Shown piece after piece: positions 19,499 through 26,984 of a stretch of DNA of 39,345 nt. The stretch lies in the IMG/VR virus record IMGVR_UViG_3300033143_003062, positions 1 through 39,345 of that record; one strand, written 5' to 3'. The stretch comes from a virus. The translations under genes and the position numbers were made by a program. How positions within the stretch are numbered: position 1 is the first letter of the stretch; each line of letters begins with the position of its first letter. Below the pieces are notes generated by a model that did no database searches, was not told the origin of the DNA, and worked only from the letters and a program-made list of their open reading frames with translations.

Positions 19499-19835
19499 AC
19501 AGGCATGTAGCGATAAAAGTATTATTATTAGTTCATCAAGCGAAGAGATAATAGTTTTATTTGTTGGAGAAAGAAAAATTCTTTTAAAAAGAGTAAGCGA
19601 CAGTCATGAGTATCTATTAATGCTACCAGAAAATGACCGTGGATATGCTTGGAAACTCAAGCCGAAAACTAAAAAGTATTGGTTGTGGAAACTTAAGGGA
19701 AGCGAAAACTCATGCTTAACTCACACGCATGACTATTATGACAATGAGTTTGTAGATACAAATGGAAAAGTATACGAATACTTAAGAAGCGCCCACTACA
19801 AAGAAAAAATACTAAGCAGCGAGCACGAGGAATGA
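19479..19835 (+). CDS. Hypothetical protein
   Basis: The ATG at 19479 follows AAGG by eight bases. The 118-residue protein has a beta-rich N-terminus (SIIISSSSEEIIVLFVG), an aromatic/basic middle (YAWKLKPKTKKYWLWKLKG) and an acidic tail. Its end overlaps the next gene by ATGA. It sits in the early region between the repeat protein and a DUF7694-like gene; function unknown. Confidence 0.6.
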   Translation: MNLEEIKQACSDKSIIISSSSEEIIVLFVGERKILLKRVSDSHEYLLMLPENDRGYAWKLKPKTKKYWLWKLKGSENSCLTHTHDYYDNEFVDTNGKVYEYLRSAHYKEKILSSEHEE

Positions 19836-20242
19836 AAAATAGAACGCAAAGACGTGCTGAAAAATCAGCCTTCAGCAAAGAACTAAGAACTGCGGTTTTT
19901 GATGAGTTTGAATCAAGAACTTCTGAATTTTTAGAGATAAGAAAATTGCACGGAAAAGATAACTCAAATGTAATTGCGTTTATGAAGAACTCAGTTTATT
20001 CCGTTCAGATTTTTAGATATGATAAAACTTATGTTCTAGGCATAAGGAGACATGATCAAAAGGCGATTTTTAAATGGTCGCATGCTCAAGAAATTAAGAA
20101 CAGACTATTAGGTAAAAACTTTACAGGATATCAAATTTTCCCAAGAGAAAAAGATTTGATAGATGAAGCTAATATATATTGGTTATTTTGCCAGCAAGGC
20201 TCGCTAATTAGTGAATTCAATTTAAAAAATTACGAATTATAG
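19832..20242 (+). CDS. DUF7694-like phage protein
   Basis: The 136-residue protein starts with a basic RTQRRAEKSAFSKELR segment, then a beta core (NSVYSVQIF, LGIRRHDQKAIFKWSHAQEI) and a helix with NRLLG, then IFPREKDLIDEANIYWLF. I recognise this order as a conserved phage protein usually found in replication regions (DUF7694). The RRHD and W-x-x-x-Q-x-I-K-N segments are the best marks. Biochemical role unknown. Confidence 0.7.
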   Translation: MKNRTQRRAEKSAFSKELRTAVFDEFESRTSEFLEIRKLHGKDNSNVIAFMKNSVYSVQIFRYDKTYVLGIRRHDQKAIFKWSHAQEIKNRLLGKNFTGYQIFPREKDLIDEANIYWLFCQQGSLISEFNLKNYEL

Positions 20243-21690: not shown

Positions 21691-21784
21691 ACTACACGCA
21701 CAAACCTTACAAGACCTAAAAACTTTACAATTTAACGCTAAATAATCTACTCTTGAATTATTGCTACTTCTAATTAAGGAAAAT

Positions 21785-22390
21785 ATGAAAGTAATAATCA
21801 AGTGTACTGGTTCGTTTTCACTGCCGCTAAAAAGCATTCAAAAAATGCAAGGCGATCTCAAAGAACTGTCAGAAGAAAACTACGAAAAATTAAAAAACAA
21901 TATTGTCAAAAATGGTTTTTGTTTCCCGTTTTTTATTTGGGAGAAAAAAACGAAGACCAAAACAGACAACATGTTACTCGACGGTCATCAAAGATTGACT
22001 GCATTAATCGTCATGTCAGAAGAAAAAATCGAGATGCCAGAAAAATTTCCGTGCATAAAAGTAATGGCAAAAACAAAAAAACAAGCAATGAGCTTAATTC
22101 TTGCCGCAAGTTCAAATTACGGAACCATGACAAAACTCGGACTCGAAAGTTTTATGGACACGTCCGGAATTACTTTTGAAGAAGTTGTTAGTGATAATTC
22201 GTTCGATGCTATTGATTTTAATTCAATGAATAACGATTATGAAAATAACGATGATACAAGCAGCAACGATAATCAAATCAACGATGAAGAAAAATTTTTA
22301 ATTGTTTTAGAATGCAAAAACGAGTCAAATCAAAATGAATTATTTGAAGAATTTCAAACAAGGGAATTAAATTGCAAACTTATGTCGTAA
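21785..22390 (+). CDS. ParB/sulfiredoxin-fold protein
   Basis: I start at 21785, preceded by AAGGA. The 201-residue protein has the ParB-like N-terminal fold: SIQKMQGDLKELSEENYEKL (~15-35), a strand with CFPFFIWEKK, then MLLDGHQRLTAL (~63-74), where the G-H-Q-R box is the family hallmark. ParB-fold proteins are CTPases, nucleases or DNA-binding adaptors. Residues ~135-165 are an Asn/Asp-rich linker and the last ~40 form a small domain. It overlaps the ABC-GNAT gene by 19 bases, so the two probably work together. Confidence 0.85.
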   Translation: MKVIIKCTGSFSLPLKSIQKMQGDLKELSEENYEKLKNNIVKNGFCFPFFIWEKKTKTKTDNMLLDGHQRLTALIVMSEEKIEMPEKFPCIKVMAKTKKQAMSLILAASSNYGTMTKLGLESFMDTSGITFEEVVSDNSFDAIDFNSMNNDYENNDDTSSNDNQINDEEKFLIVLECKNESNQNELFEEFQTRELNCKLMS

Positions 22391-23499
22391 ATTTAGAATC
22401 AGAAGTATCAAAAACATTTCGTTGCCAAAAAGCTGCGGATTCATTGGATATCGACGTTGAAAAAAAATCCAAGCATTTGTTCGAAGTCATTGCCGATTTA
22501 AAAACTGAATACAATATAGGTTTAATAGTTGGTGCTTCCGGTTCAGGCAAAACGACTTTGGCTAAACAAATATTCGGTGATGATTGCTTCAAAGAATACA
22601 TTGATATGAAAAAACCAATAATAGAACAATTGCCAAAAAGTTTAGAATACAACGATTGTCAAAAAATATTATCAGGAGTTGGTTTAACGTCTGTTCCTTG
22701 TTGGATAAGGTCAGCCTACACGCTTTCAAACGGTCAAAAAGCTCGCGCAGAGATGGCTTTGGCCTGTTATAATTCAAAAGATGATGTTATTGTCATAGAT
22801 GAATTTACTTCTGTTGTAGATAGAACGGTCGCTAAAATCATGAGTCATTCAATTCAAAAATTTGCAAGAAAAGAAAAAAAAACCATCGTTTTGTGCGCAT
22901 GCCATTATGATATAATGGAATGGTTGAATCCTGATTGGGTGATAGATTGCAATAAACAAAAATATATTGATCGGAGGTCACTTCGGCAAAATTTTGAAAG
23001 AAAAGAAAAACTCAATTTCACAATCAAAGAAATCGACAGAAAAACATGGAAATATTTTAGCAAATATCATTATTTAAGTGAACGATTGCCTGGTGGCAAA
23101 TTGTATTTATACGGTTTATTTGAAGGTGAAAATCAAATAGGTTTTCAATGTTTTGCTAATTATGTTCCAAAAAGAAAAACAACTAAAACATGGATATATC
23201 ATTCTAACAGAACGGTTATTCATCCCGATTATGCAGGCATGGGATTGGGTATACTATTGATAAATGAAACCAGCGAGCTTATGTATAAAAAAGAAAATAT
23301 TAAAGTTATGGCGAAATTTTCATCGACTCCTATTTATAAATCTATGATAAAACAAAACTGTTGGTCATTGCAAAACATTGAAAGAAACATGGTTATTTTC
23401 AAAATGGGCGGTGCATGTAAGCCGAAAGGTAAAGGTGGATACAGGCATAAAATAAAAACTTATTCTTTTTTATATACAGGCAAAAACAATGACAACTAA
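22372..23499 (+). CDS. ABC-type ATPase fused to a GNAT acetyltransferase domain (COG2401-like)
   Basis: It starts at TTG 22372 with AAGGGA six bases upstream. Residues 1-215 are an ABC ATPase: Walker A GASGSGKTT (54-62), signature LSNGQKARAEMA (~119-130), Walker B VIVIDEFTS (~139-147) and switch His in CACHYD. Residues ~220-375 are a GNAT domain with HYLSERLPGGKLYLYGLF, then IGFQCFANY, then the coenzyme-A-binding HPDYAGMGLG (~284-293). No membrane domain is present, so it is not a transporter. The GNAT start resembles Mom-type DNA-modifying enzymes. With the ParB protein before it and terminase after it, DNA modification or anti-restriction is a reasonable inference. Confidence 0.8.
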   Translation: MQTYVVNLESEVSKTFRCQKAADSLDIDVEKKSKHLFEVIADLKTEYNIGLIVGASGSGKTTLAKQIFGDDCFKEYIDMKKPIIEQLPKSLEYNDCQKILSGVGLTSVPCWIRSAYTLSNGQKARAEMALACYNSKDDVIVIDEFTSVVDRTVAKIMSHSIQKFARKEKKTIVLCACHYDIMEWLNPDWVIDCNKQKYIDRRSLRQNFERKEKLNFTIKEIDRKTWKYFSKYHYLSERLPGGKLYLYGLFEGENQIGFQCFANYVPKRKTTKTWIYHSNRTVIHPDYAGMGLGILLINETSELMYKKENIKVMAKFSSTPIYKSMIKQNCWSLQNIERNMVIFKMGGACKPKGKGGYRHKIKTYSFLYTGKNNDN

Positions 23500-23920
23500 A
23501 TTAAAAGAAGTAAAAGCCAAACCAAGAGGCAAACCATTCAAAAAAGGCAACAGTTTAGCATCCGGTAACAAGATGTCTGACGAGCAAAAGCTAAAAGCAA
23601 AGCTAACTCGGACGCAATTGAGAATCATAATAAGAAAATTTTTGTATTTAAACAAACCTGAGCTGGTCGAAGTCGTTAATGATGCAAATACAAATATACT
23701 TGAATTGATGGTCGCGTCTGTAATGAATAAGGCAATCGTTCAGGGTGACGAGAAAAGAATCAATTGGTTTTTGGAACAACTATTCGGAAAACTAAAAGAA
23801 AAACAAGAAGTACAAATAACAGGCGAAATAAACACTAAACCGAATTATCATTTGAAAAATTTAAGTGATGCGGATTTATTAAAGCTGAAAGAAATTGCAG
23901 CAAAGGCGGAAGCGGAATGA
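23489..23920 (+). CDS. Putative terminase small subunit
   Basis: The 143-residue protein opens with the Gly/Lys/Pro-rich segment RGKPFKKGNSLASGNK, common at the N-terminus of phage small terminases, followed by a helical domain (RTQLRIIIRKFLYL) and a helix NILELMVASVMNKAIVQGD. It overlaps the ABC-GNAT gene by 11 bases and lies three genes before the large terminase. Small subunits recognise the packaging site. The call rests on the N-terminal signature and position. Confidence 0.7.
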   Translation: MTTKLKEVKAKPRGKPFKKGNSLASGNKMSDEQKLKAKLTRTQLRIIIRKFLYLNKPELVEVVNDANTNILELMVASVMNKAIVQGDEKRINWFLEQLFGKLKEKQEVQITGEINTKPNYHLKNLSDADLLKLKEIAAKAEAE

Positions 23921-24156
23921 ATTGCATAATAACAAAACTCCCAACGAAAAATAAATGGCGAGGGCATGTCATTCATCCTTATGCGCTCGCTAAAGCTAAA
24001 ATAATGATTGTCGAAAAAGGTAATGCAAATTTAACTATGCGCAAATGCTTGATGCATCTACAAAAAGAATTCCAAATGATTTTAGCTAAAGAAAAAGAAG
24101 TTTCAAATGAAAAATATTGCGAGCTTCTTGAAAAGTTTTTAGGTGGTGATGAATGA
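23917..24156 (+). CDS. Hypothetical protein between terminase genes
   Basis: The 79-residue basic helical protein starts at an ATGA overlap with the small terminase. It has HVIHPYALAKAKIMIVEKGN and a charged helix at the end. No metal site or known motif. Translational coupling suggests a packaging accessory role. Confidence 0.55.
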   Translation: MNCIITKLPTKNKWRGHVIHPYALAKAKIMIVEKGNANLTMRKCLMHLQKEFQMILAKEKEVSNEKYCELLEKFLGGDE

Positions 24157-24314
24157 ATTACTTATGGAGAATCATTCTTATTATCCCTATATTGATTGTG
24201 ATAAACGCATTTATTATTATGCAAGTAATCTTCAATATAAATTTAGACAAAAATAATCATGTACAATATTGTTTGGATTTCGTTGAAGAAAAATGCGGCA
24301 TCAATACCCTGTAA
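24153..24314 (+). CDS. 53-residue membrane protein upstream of large terminase
   Basis: ATGA overlap with the previous gene and a stop that abuts the terminase ATG. A single membrane helix (IILIIPILIVINAFIIMQVI, ~7-26) is followed by a polar tail with two cysteines (YCLDFVEEKC). A membrane protein in the packaging operon is unexpected; function unknown. Confidence 0.55.
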   Translation: MNYLWRIILIIPILIVINAFIIMQVIFNINLDKNNHVQYCLDFVEEKCGINTL

Positions 24315-26984
24315 ATGCAACTATACTCGTCAGAAGAAATTGAAAAAGAAATATTAAAACGAAAACTTGAAGGCGATCTTTTAGAATTTCTTTTGTGGGT
24401 ATTTAAATACATATACCGTCGACCATTTATAGTTAATTGGCATCATGAAACATTGTGCCGCGTTTTAATGGATATACATTCAGGGAAACTTCAACACGTT
24501 ATAATTAATATACCTCCCAGATATAGCAAAACGGAAATTGTTGTAAAAATGTTTGTAGCTTGGTGTTACGCTAAAGATTACGATTGCGAGTTTTTACATT
24601 TAGCTTATTCAGATGATTTAGCATTGGCGAATTCTTCCGCAATGAAACTAATAATTGAAAGCGTGGAATTTCAAGAATTATGGCCATTAGAATTTCAAAA
24701 AGATTCTACGGCAAAAAAGAAATGGAAAACAATTGCAGGCGGCGAAATGTCGGCAGCAGCATCGGGCGGAAGTGTTACTGGTTTTGGTAGCGGCAAGATA
24801 GGCGCGAAAACATTTAAAGGCGCATTGATAATAGATGACCCATTAAAACCAGAAGATTCAAATTCTCCAACGCTATTAAACAAAATCAACAACAGATTTC
24901 CACAAACTATAAAATCAAGATTAAATGATAGGTCAACACCAATGATTGTTATCATGCAAAGGCTAAATGAAAATGACCCTGCAGGATTTTTATTAAACGG
25001 AGGAACGGAATTAAAATTCACTCACATAAATTTACCGGCAATAAATGAGGATGGACCTAGTGACTACGACCCGAGAAATAAAGGTGATATTTTATGGCCA
25101 TTTAAGCATACAGCAGAAGAATTAGAAAAAATGAGGGTGTCCGATGCAATGACGTTTGCAGGACAGTATCAGCAAAGGCCAGCACCGGCGGAAGGAAATA
25201 TTTTTAGGTGGTTTTATTTTTATAAAGAACTTCCAAAAACTATTATACAAAAAAATCATTCGTGGGATTTTACATTTAAAAAATCAAAACATTCTGATTA
25301 TGTTGTTGGACAAAACTGGGGTTCAACTAAATCTGGAGACCACTACTTGATTGATCTAGTAAGAGCTAAGATGAGTTTCACAGAATCACTCGAGTCGATA
25401 AGGCATTTTTGTAAAAAACACCCTGACTATAGAAGCGTTTTAATAGAAGCAAAGGCAAACGGCGAAGCAATTATTGATTCTGTTAGAAATGAAGTTAAGA
25501 ATGTTATAGCAATAAATCCAACTGAATCGAAGGAGGAACGCGCGGAAGCCGTTGCGCCAATGTTTCAAGCTCAAAGAATATTTTTGCCACACCCATCGAT
25601 TGCACCTTGGGTTAATGATATGATTAACGAGATGAAGGTTTTCCCGAATGGGAAACACGATGATTGTCATCCTTATTCGTCAATGATACAAACACCTCAC
25701 GGGAAAATAAAAATAGGTAAAATCAAAGTAGGTCAGAAAGTATTGTCATGGAGCGGAAGCGAGATAAAAATAGGTAGAGTGTATAAATCAAGAAGCACGG
25801 GCATAAAAAAAATCGTTAAAGTAAAAATCGAAAATACGATAATAGAAATGACAGAATCTCATCCCGTCTTAACTCAGAGAGGTTGGGTATGTGCAGGAAT
25901 GTTGAAAGAAAAGGACTGTATTGTAAAAGTAGTCAAGTCGAATTTGACGGCCTTAAATGGACAAGAAAAAAAAGCGGGGATTATCAATGCACAACAAGAA
26001 AAAACGGTAAAAGATACTGACTTCATCGATATGTGTTTGAAAAATTTTCAAAAAATGGAATACAAAAAGACATGTCTATACATCATAAAGATCATGACAA
26101 AAACAATAACTTGCTCTCAAATCTCGAACAACTCACAACGTCGGAACATACCATCAAGCATGGAATATTTAAATCGGGAATGGTTGACAGAAGCGACAGG
26201 CAGCAAGAAATCACATGCGAACTTGCTTCACTCGCGAAGAAAGGATTGTATTGCGGAAAAAAGAAAAGATGGCTTCATAGAGAAAATATTAAGTGCAAAA
26301 CTTGTAACAAAGAATTTAGTCCACACAAAAACGCCAAATTTAATACAATCTATTGCAGCGACAGTTGCAGAAGTAAAGCAACAAATAAATACAATGAAGA
26401 ATATATCAAAAAAGGTTATGGGTGCATTTGGTGCAAAAAATCATTTCAATACGATAAAAATATATATAGAAAATTTTGCTCATCAATCTGTTGCGACAAG
26501 TATAGATATGCAAACAAAAAAAACACAAAAGAATGCTCAGTATGCAAACGTGAGTTTCAAGCATACAGAGGTCACGCATACGAGTTTTGTCAAAAATGCA
26601 ATATCTATAAAAGAAAATGCATTGAATGCGAATCTTTATTCAAAACAAAACGAAGTGGAAGAAAAATGTATTGCAGTAGTGCGTGCAATCAAAGATTCAA
26701 TAGGCGTAAAAATAAACAAGGTTCCAATTGAATCAAGTAATGCAATTTTTGTAAAAATTGATTCTGTTGAATATTCAAGAGAAGAAGAATGTTTTGCGAT
26801 TGACGTGGAAAGCTATCATAATTATTTATTAAATGATTACGTTGTTCATAACTGCGTTGATGCAGCGACGCAGTATCTAAACCACATGCAAAACTCAAAA
26901 GTCGGCTCATTTGGCGGCATGAAAAACGCAAATGAAAACAAATCTTTCAAAAATGCCGAAAAGCGTTTAAACTTTAGAAGCTAG
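24315..26984 (+). CDS. Terminase large subunit containing an intein
   Basis: The 889-residue precursor is 493 residues once the intein (residues 451-846) is spliced out. The ATPase half has Walker A-type PPRYSKTE (67-74) and Walker B GALIIDDPLK (~168-177). The nuclease half has WDFTFKKSKHSDY (~317, first metal Asp), EAKANG (~379-384) and PNGKHDD (444-450), rejoined after splicing to CVDAATQYL. The protein pumps DNA into the prohead and cuts it. The insertion directly follows the conserved HDD of the nuclease site, so activity should depend on splicing. The start abuts the previous stop. All three motif groups are intact. Confidence 0.93.
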   Translation: MQLYSSEEIEKEILKRKLEGDLLEFLLWVFKYIYRRPFIVNWHHETLCRVLMDIHSGKLQHVIINIPPRYSKTEIVVKMFVAWCYAKDYDCEFLHLAYSDDLALANSSAMKLIIESVEFQELWPLEFQKDSTAKKKWKTIAGGEMSAAASGGSVTGFGSGKIGAKTFKGALIIDDPLKPEDSNSPTLLNKINNRFPQTIKSRLNDRSTPMIVIMQRLNENDPAGFLLNGGTELKFTHINLPAINEDGPSDYDPRNKGDILWPFKHTAEELEKMRVSDAMTFAGQYQQRPAPAEGNIFRWFYFYKELPKTIIQKNHSWDFTFKKSKHSDYVVGQNWGSTKSGDHYLIDLVRAKMSFTESLESIRHFCKKHPDYRSVLIEAKANGEAIIDSVRNEVKNVIAINPTESKEERAEAVAPMFQAQRIFLPHPSIAPWVNDMINEMKVFPNGKHDDCHPYSSMIQTPHGKIKIGKIKVGQKVLSWSGSEIKIGRVYKSRSTGIKKIVKVKIENTIIEMTESHPVLTQRGWVCAGMLKEKDCIVKVVKSNLTALNGQEKKAGIINAQQEKTVKDTDFIDMCLKNFQKMEYKKTCLYIIKIMTKTITCSQISNNSQRRNIPSSMEYLNREWLTEATGSKKSHANLLHSRRKDCIAEKRKDGFIEKILSAKLVTKNLVHTKTPNLIQSIAATVAEVKQQINTMKNISKKVMGAFGAKNHFNTIKIYIENFAHQSVATSIDMQTKKTQKNAQYANVSFKHTEVTHTSFVKNAISIKENALNANLYSKQNEVEEKCIAVVRAIKDSIGVKINKVPIESSNAIFVKIDSVEYSREEECFAIDVESYHNYLLNDYVVHNCVDAATQYLNHMQNSKVGSFGGMKNANENKSFKNAEKRLNFRS
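25937..26020 (+). other. Conserved N-terminal HNH coding frame upstream of an in-frame TGA
   Basis: In the -1 frame this stretch reads VEFDGLKWTRKKSGDYQC and continues TTRKNGKRY, then TGA (26018-26020), then LHRYVFEKF. That is the usual beginning of this type of HNH homing endonuclease (G-x-K-W/Y-x-R-K-x-G-Y, then L-H-R-Y-V-x-E). So the original gene began about 95 bases before the longest present ORF and is now cut by a stop, possibly a single CGA-to-TGA change. An eight-A run (25966-25973) holds an A_AAA_AAA slip site that would lead from the terminase frame into this frame. Confidence 0.65.
26033..26731 (+). CDS. HNH homing endonuclease with zinc ribbons, nested out of frame inside the terminase intein
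   Basis: The longest start is GTG 26033 (232 residues); ATG 26072 is an alternative. Neither has a good ribosome site. The HNH core is SIHHKDHDKNNNLLSNLEQL (residues ~15-34) followed by TSEHTIKH. Then come four cysteine ribbons of the form C-x2-C-x3-F ... C-x3-C (CKTCNKEF/YCSDSC, CIWCKKSF/FCSSIC, CSVCKREF/FCQKC, CIECESLF/YCSSAC), which give DNA-binding specificity in related enzymes. The gene lies wholly inside the intein in the -1 frame and ends about nine bases before intein block F begins. It should cut intein-less terminase genes to spread the intein. Confidence 0.88.
   Translation: MFEKFSKNGIQKDMSIHHKDHDKNNNLLSNLEQLTTSEHTIKHGIFKSGMVDRSDRQQEITCELASLAKKGLYCGKKKRWLHRENIKCKTCNKEFSPHKNAKFNTIYCSDSCRSKATNKYNEEYIKKGYGCIWCKKSFQYDKNIYRKFCSSICCDKYRYANKKNTKECSVCKREFQAYRGHAYEFCQKCNIYKRKCIECESLFKTKRSGRKMYCSSACNQRFNRRKNKQGSN

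What the first reader, a model, noticed from the sequence alone, without database searches (positions are those of the whole stretch)
21785..23499. ParB-fold protein plus ABC ATPase-GNAT fusion beside the terminase
The genes overlap by 19 bases. The ABC part has all ATPase motifs but no membrane partner, and the attached GNAT domain begins with a HYLSERLPGGK-type segment like Mom-related base-modifying enzymes. ParB-fold proteins often work on or load onto DNA. Together with terminase this suggests ATP-driven DNA scanning and chemical modification before packaging, which would protect against host restriction.
Basis: partly seen in the sequence, partly recalled or inferred. Interest (0 to 1): 0.75.

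Follow-up and report, generated by a model that had tools for sequence, protein, structure and literature searches.

The report
Phage candidate DNA-acylating gene trio
Just upstream of its DNA-packaging genes this virus carries a clamp-like protein and an ATPase joined to an acetyltransferase, a pairing found in hundreds of other phages and most likely used to put a still unidentified chemical tag on phage DNA so that bacteria cannot cut it.

Summary
21785-22390 encodes a divergent ParB/Srx-fold protein. 22372-23499 (TTG start, 19-nt overlap) encodes a 375-aa ABC ATPase fused to a GNAT domain. Terminase genes follow. It is not a one-off: the ABC-GNAT family occurs in hundreds of (pro)phage loci. 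A ParB gene lies directly upstream in 106/142 non-redundant loci, two bacterial loci carry apparent single-chain ParB-ABC-GNAT fusions, and a TerL-like gene lies within 4 kb downstream in 119/182.

The closest ParB relatives without ABC-GNAT are nearly all tied to DNA modification: 51 of 79 are fused to a DNA methyltransferase, 10 sit beside Mom, at least 6 beside a separate methyltransferase. ABC-GNAT-linked ParBs carry their own C-terminal domain (149/159, against 0/79 others).

Best reading: an ATP-driven DNA acylation system. Iyer, Aravind and colleagues already predicted that a GNAT coupled to an ABC ATPase acylates DNA bases; I found no test. The GNAT shares an invariant His-Tyr with Mom but misses the Mom cut-off, lacks Mom's SFAD motif and keeps a CoA loop, so it may work like Mom without being shown to be Mom. 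Coupling to packaging is not supported. In cultured Gram-positive phages the GNAT lies in the -1 frame, suggesting programmed frameshifting.

The parts
21776..21780 (+). Shine-Dalgarno AAGGA for the ParB-like gene
   Evidence: sequence read directly
21785..22390 (+). ParB/Srx-fold protein, 201 aa, with GHQR phosphate-loop motif and a C-terminal ~45-aa domain
   Evidence: phrog_620/498; 18/29 upstream genes of homologues match PF02195; alignment A7
22247..22387 (+). C-terminal domain of the ParB protein (..EEKFLIVLECKNESNQNELFEEFQTRELNCKLMS), specific to ABC-GNAT-linked ParBs; boundaries approximate
   Evidence: HMM found in 149/159 ABC-GNAT-linked ParBs and 0/79 other ParB relatives
22360..22365 (+). 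Shine-Dalgarno AAGGGA for the ABC-GNAT gene, inside the ParB gene
   Evidence: sequence read directly
22372..23499 (+). ABC ATPase-GNAT fusion, 375 aa, TTG start
   Evidence: phrog_11143 full length E 5e-79; structure model pLDDT 87.6; PDB matches
22531..22554 (+). Walker A GASGSGKT (residues 54-61)
   Evidence: near-invariant in A6
22723..22737 (+). ABC signature LSNGQ (residues 118-122)
   Evidence: L118, S119, G121 invariant and N120 at least 90% in A6
22798..22803 (+). Walker B Asp and catalytic Glu (residues 143-144)
   Evidence: invariant in A6
22903..22905 (+). H-loop His178
   Evidence: invariant in A6
23011..23496 (+). GNAT domain (residues 214-375)
   Evidence: model pLDDT 86; RimI/SpeG-like fold, Z 12-13.7
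23068..23100 (+). HYLSERLPGGK segment (residues 233-243); His-Tyr-Leu invariant in the family, His-Tyr also invariant in Mom
23227..23250 (+). acyl-CoA P-loop DYAGMGLG (residues 286-293)
   Evidence: G289/G291/G293 invariant
23489..23920 (+). TerS-like small ORF overlapping the ABC-GNAT stop by 11 nt
   Evidence: position, plus phrog_15125 of unknown function E 4e-5; a terminase small subunit is annotated at the equivalent place in Pasteurella phage Pmp13
24315..26984 (+). terminase large subunit with intein
   Evidence: phrog_38 E 2e-106, PF17289, PF14890

Best explanation
The pair is a phage DNA-modification cassette. The ParB/Srx-fold protein binds or clamps DNA and, through its own C-terminal domain, docks the ABC ATPase-GNAT protein on it. 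ATP-driven dimerisation and opening of the ABC domains positions or flips the target base, or licenses the complex to move along DNA. The GNAT domain, with a canonical CoA-binding loop and an invariant His-Tyr as in Mom, transfers an acyl group to a base (probably an exocyclic amine). The resulting tag most likely shields phage DNA from host nucleases. Shown: genes, motifs, folds, the conserved pairing and apparent fusions, and the swap of the same ParB module onto methyltransferases and Mom. Inferred: DNA as substrate, the acyl group, docking by the ParB C-terminal domain, the role of ATP, and protection.
For: Conserved adjacency ParB -> ABC-GNAT in 106/142 non-redundant loci, mostly with 3-21 nt overlap, and two apparent single-chain ParB-ABC-GNAT ORFs, L127 and L187. 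Of the 79 nearest ParB relatives, 51 are fused to DNA methyltransferases (DPPY and FGGSGTT motifs), 10 sit beside a Pfam-Mom gene (best E 6.6e-55), at least 6 beside a C5 or N6/N4 methyltransferase, 6 beside ABC-GNAT. ParB is also next to Mom-like genes in Microbacterium and Arthrobacter phages. GNAT against Mom profile: 65-87% with the HY segments aligned, against 0.4-2% for reversed or shuffled profiles. All ABC and CoA-loop motifs kept. No N6/N4 or C5 methyltransferase model matches elsewhere in the window. Precedents in the literature: DpdB, a ParB-like ATPase, serving the DpdA base-exchange enzyme (PMC12839542); DndB (ParB) with the DndD ABC ATPase (PMC10853773); published prediction that a GNAT coupled to an ABC ATPase acylates a DNA base, example phage pT24 (PMC7824862), a phage our protein matches at E 6e-44.
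Against: No biochemical datum was found for any member. The GNAT's nearest solved folds are protein and polyamine acetyltransferases. A single RimI or SpeG scores as well as a single Mom, and Mom's Asp149 motif is not conserved. The window's own ParB is divergent (the PYxxNxRTHS and IADN motifs are degenerate). 14 of the 26 non-training loci of the first viral scan have no recognisable adjacent ParB, so ParB is not strictly required, or has diverged there.
Confidence: 0.62

Rival explanations
1. The ABC-GNAT protein acetylates a protein (host RNA polymerase, terminase or another packaging factor), with ParB as adaptor; the system steers host takeover or packaging rather than DNA chemistry.
For: GNAT fold closest in the PDB to RimI, SpeG and Nat-type enzymes; canonical CoA loop; phages use GNATs such as Rac against RNA polymerase (PMC7824862); position next to the terminase in 119/182 loci.
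Against: The ParB module's other partners are DNA methyltransferases and Mom; the cassette sits beside many unrelated TerL families, so no one packaging protein is the conserved partner.
Confidence: 0.17
2. The cassette is a defence or superinfection-exclusion module in the style of Dnd or MADS, carried by the phage as cargo, which senses or attacks competitor DNA; any modification only marks self.
For: PADLOC mad3 (E 5e-12) and mad8 hits of the ABC part; ParB + ABC ATPase resembles DndB + DndD; ParB/Srx proteins can nick DNA or act on nucleotides.
Against: The PADLOC hits cover only ABC motif regions; no nuclease gene was noticed as a regular member of the cassette (not tested systematically); most loci lie next to phage terminase genes.
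Confidence: 0.1
3. The cassette modifies RNA (for instance tRNA), like TmcA, an ATPase-GNAT that acetylates cytidine in tRNA (own knowledge).
For: An ATPase-GNAT fusion that acylates a nucleobase is a known architecture (own knowledge); the CoA loop and ATPase motifs fit.
Against: The ParB partner and the methyltransferase/Mom swaps point to DNA; the ATPase is ABC, not helicase-like; no tRNA gene in the window.
Confidence: 0.08
4. A true ABC transporter subunit, as several records annotate it (iron siderophore transporter).
For: Best PDB matches of residues 1-213 are mostly transporter NBDs.
Against: No permease gene annotated next to the copies inspected; ABC and GNAT are in one open frame in 222 of 233 loci; the NBD fold is shared by non-transport ABC proteins.
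Confidence: 0.03

Closest known systems
GNAT coupled with an ABC ATPase, predicted DNA-base acylation system (Iyer, Aravind and colleagues; restated in PMC7824862, example Tenacibaculum phage pT24); phrog_11143; 'MK0520, ABC-type ATPase fused to a predicted acetyltransferase' (annotation in phage Cyrano)
   Same: Same domain pair, sequence similarity to the pT24 gene (E 6e-44), phrog_11143 over the full length.
   Different: The ParB partner with its own C-terminal domain, the apparent ParB-ABC-GNAT fusions and the -1 frame variants are not described in the passages I could read; the original 2013 paper was not held, so it may describe some of this.
Phage Mu Mom family (PF25680, phrog_1384)
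   Same: GNAT superfamily; invariant His-Tyr followed by a strand of the type G[VL][FW]; a ParB gene beside Mom-like genes in some phages.
   Different: Mom has no ABC ATPase, lacks the PDYxGxGxG CoA loop, and has SFAD/NSES motifs not conserved here; the window protein misses the Pfam cut-off.
ParB-DNA methyltransferase fusions (phrog_498)
   Same: Closely related ParB module; phage-borne.
   Different: ParB is fused to the methyltransferase and lacks the C-terminal domain seen here; the chemistry is methylation.
Dnd (DndB ParB + DndD ABC ATPase) and Dpd (DpdB ParB-like ATPase + DpdA)
   Same: ParB-like protein and/or ABC ATPase serving a DNA modification enzyme (PMC10853773, PMC12839542).
   Different: Phosphorothioate or 7-deazaguanine chemistry, different enzymes.

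Membership tests
GNAT-ABC ATPase predicted DNA-acylation family (phrog_11143) | full-length homology to family members | tested here: met
   phrog_11143 E 5.1e-79 over 6-373; pT24 hit E 6e-44
GNAT-ABC ATPase predicted DNA-acylation family (phrog_11143) | acylates a DNA base | not testable with these tools
   needs LC-MS or nanopore sequencing of virion DNA
ABC ATPase (catalytically competent NBD) | Walker A, LSGGQ-type signature, Walker B + Glu, D-loop, H-loop | tested here: met
   invariant or near-invariant in A6; NBD fold Z 14
GNAT superfamily | GNAT fold and acyl-CoA P-loop | tested here: met
   model pLDDT 86, 5isv Z 13.5; G289/G291/G293 invariant
Mom family PF25680 | score over the curated cut-off of 27.1 bits | tested here: not met
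   16.3 and 18.2 bits
Mom family PF25680 | invariant His-Tyr after the first helix | tested here: met
   H233-Y234 invariant; aligned with the Mom HY by hhalign
Mom family PF25680 | SFAD Asp149 motif and ELxR..PRNSES region | tested here: not met
   KFSS and PDYxGxGxG at the corresponding stretches, by eye from A3 and A11; the profile alignments do not extend through them with confidence
ParB/Srx superfamily | match of the window protein itself to ParB_N PF02195 | tested here: not met
   no PF02195 hit for the window protein at the E-values searched
ParB/Srx superfamily | homology to ParB-like proteins and GHxR phosphate motif | tested here: met
   phrog_620 E 5e-7; 18/29 upstream genes of homologues match PF02195; GHQR aligned with GHGR
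ParB/Srx superfamily | CTP- or ATP-dependent DNA clamping | not testable with these tools
   biochemistry needed

The most novel reading that the evidence does not exclude
A three-module DNA acyltransferase (ParB clamp, ABC ATPase, GNAT) that installs a previously unknown acylated base in the DNA of many phages, with ATP turnover gating the chemistry, and in Gram-positive phages the ratio of ABC to ABC-GNAT set by programmed -1 frameshifting.
Probability: 0.45. Interest if true: 0.82.

Novelty: new member of a known kind. Interest (0 to 1): 0.52.

Why it matters
If true it adds an ATP-driven acylated-base chemistry to the phage arsenal against restriction, and the cultured phages make it directly testable.

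Tried and rejected
The 700-aa ABC ORF of L007 looked like a ParB fusion but its N-terminal part reads as an out-of-frame stretch; the long ORFs of L151 and L171 likewise. Mom family membership was tested by Pfam, PHROG, hhalign and fold search: only superfamily-level support; the control with E. coli RimI, SpeG, ElaA and RimJ stopped me from claiming Mom specificity. PADLOC mad3/mad8 hits were set aside as ABC-motif matches. A broad ParB alignment was too diverse for a scan, so a narrower one was used. Papers on COG2401/MK0520: none held; the 2013 NAR paper is not held. No Mom structure appears among the PDB rows listed, which does not exclude one.

Full report
Observation. The ParB-like gene starts at ATG 21785 with AAGGA upstream and stops at 22390; the ABC-GNAT gene starts at TTG 22372 with AAGGGA upstream and stops at 23499, a 19-nt overlap. 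Three small overlapping ORFs (23489-23920, 23917-24156, 24153-24314) lead to the terminase large subunit at 24315. The window is a 39,345-base virus record with tape measure, tail fibre, portal, major head protein, RecT, Gam and a DnaD-like loader, that is, a tailed phage.

The proteins. The 375-aa protein matches phrog_11143 over its full length (E 5e-79). Across 38 relatives all ABC motifs and the GNAT CoA loop are invariant or nearly so, as are W226, F229, H233, Y234 and L235. AlphaFold gives a confident two-domain model (pLDDT 87.6): ABC NBD 1-213 (1f3o Z 14.0, 179 residues, 3.7 A) and GNAT 214-375 (5isv Z 13.7, 132 residues, 3.0 A). The upstream protein is divergent: by itself it matches only ParB-like PHROGs and, below cut-off, GmrSD_N, but the genes in the same place in relatives are clear ParB_N proteins (18 of 29 scanned).

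It is a recurrent module. Scans found at least 430 relatives in bacterial and archaeal genomes and at least 598 in viral contigs (the latter limited by row number), and 79 records in the phage collection. With a ParB profile, a ParB gene lies directly upstream in 12/26 (first viral scan, training loci left out), 46/61 (genomes) and 48/55 (second viral scan) non-redundant loci, typically overlapping by 3, 15, 18 or 21 nt. In a Gemmataceae and a Planctomycetota contig the three modules form one ORF (L127:7257-9092, L187:7380-9134); these are single contigs of metagenome-assembled genomes and were not checked for assembly error. (The script counts three fusions; the third, L007, I rejected, so strictly 105 or 106 of 142 depending on its ParB frame, which also lies upstream in L007.) Using iterative TerL profiles seeded from the window and five phages, a TerL-like gene lies within 4 kb downstream in 119 of 182 loci with enough sequence; the neighbours belong to many unrelated TerL PHROGs. 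The cassette therefore moves between phages as a unit, which argues against a dedicated contact with one terminase.

What the ParB module does elsewhere. I searched viral contigs with nine ParB proteins that all came from ABC-GNAT loci. Of 79 classified hits, 51 are ParB proteins of 370-540 aa whose C-terminal half carries DPPY and FGGSGTT methyltransferase motifs; 10 have a Mom gene next door (Pfam Mom in 10, best E 6.6e-55); 6 have ABC-GNAT; of 12 others, three neighbours match C5 and three N6/N4 methyltransferases, three match CTP_transf_like and three His_Phos_1 (hits are counted per family and some neighbours may hold both). ParB also precedes Mom-like genes in Microbacterium phage Antuna (8-nt overlap) and Arthrobacter phage Sonny. 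A separate HMM of the last ~50 residues of ABC-GNAT-linked ParBs finds that domain in 149 of 159 of them and in none of 79 other ParB relatives. About 26 of the 159 were in the training set; the remaining matches are independent. I infer that this domain docks the ABC-GNAT protein.

Mom or not. Mom proteins share an invariant His-Tyr at the same place (A5, A11). Profile comparison gives 65-87% probability with that segment aligned, against 0.4-2% for reversed and shuffled profiles. But the Pfam Mom cut-off is missed, the E. coli RimI and SpeG sequences alone score as well as single Mom sequences, and the SFAD and PRNSES regions of Mom are not conserved; instead the family keeps a canonical CoA loop that Mom lacks. 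In the viral structure library the nearest matches are a mixture of viral GNATs, one named Mom, one Mom-like (LP65 Orf128) and proteins named endonuclease-like. So: same superfamily, shared acceptor-side motif, family membership not met.

Mechanism. Two things make DNA the likeliest substrate: the partner swap (methyltransferase, Mom or ABC-GNAT on one ParB module) and literature precedents in which ParB-like proteins serve DNA modification enzymes (DpdB, DndB). Iyer et al. state that they had predicted a GNAT coupled with an ABC ATPase to acylate a DNA base, naming phage pT24, a phage in which our protein has a match. The accession they cite was not compared with the pT24 gene hit here. The window has no recognisable N6/N4 or C5 methyltransferase, so this cassette is its only candidate modifier that I found. 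The role of ATP, the acyl group, the base and any protection are inference.

Frameshift variants. In 222 of 233 loci ABC and GNAT share one frame, as they do in the window. In 10 of the 11 exceptions the GNAT lies in the -1 frame. In the eight whose junction falls in the ABC-GNAT linker (L033, L034, L035, L220, L223, L070, L073, L074; the first two near-identical) the GNAT frame has no usable start before the HYL motif, and runs such as CCA AAA AAA AAA GGG or TTT TTT TTT GCC sit in the linker of the first five. The same arrangement is found in Lactococcus P335, Oenococcus Vinitor-27 and Streptococcus Javan141, Javan420, MismyG and phiGBSVK-E1 phages, with a conserved stretch close to AACAGGTTTTTCAATTCCCCCACGAAG in the Lactococcus and Streptococcus ones. 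The annotated GNAT ORFs of these phages start after the HYL motif and so would lack part of the fold. I read this as programmed -1 frameshifting that yields ABC alone and ABC-GNAT; sequencing errors in homopolymers cannot be excluded for the metagenomic loci but do not explain the recurrence in sequenced phages.

Verdict. Confirmed observation; ordinary in the sense that the family was predicted before, interesting because the association evidence assembled here is strong and a direct test is within reach in cultured phages. The claimed link to packaging is not supported beyond gene order.

Noticed in passing
window 26033-26731 (+), inside TerL 24315-26984: The TerL ORF holds an intein, and an HNH endonuclease ORF lies inside the intein in another reading frame (HNH_3 E 1e-6). 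The TerL frame stays open across it (only 70 of 5000 codon-usage-preserving shuffles of the HNH ORF keep it open). The HNH frame has a stop (..GKRY*LHRYV..) just upstream of its first start, so it may be decaying. An out-of-frame nested homing gene or a recent insertion.
   Followed up: partly
L070, L073, L074, L357, L358, L360 (around the ABC stop); L033, L034, L035, L220, L223: ABC and GNAT in -1 frames, with homopolymer slip sites in the linker of the metagenomic ones, recurring in phages of Lactococcus, Streptococcus and Oenococcus: likely programmed -1 frameshifting.
   Followed up: partly
L127:7257-9092 and L187:7380-9134: Apparent single-chain ParB-ABC-GNAT proteins in Planctomycetota genomes.
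   Followed up: partly
downstream of ParB in some of L291-L348 (alignment A10): Neighbours of the ParB module include CTP_transf_like and His_Phos_1 matches (3 members each), a possible further partner class; I did not check which protein holds which domain.
   Followed up: no
window 19832-20242: DUF7694 protein upstream of the cassette (PF24746 E 4.8e-8).
   Followed up: no
Aeromonas phage PX29 (L110 and hit H31): One phage carries both a Mom-like gene and an ABC-GNAT relative.
   Followed up: no
phage database annotations (L073, L074, L357, L360): The ABC part is annotated as iron siderophore transporter and the ParB gene as a DNA methylase: probable annotation errors.
   Followed up: partly
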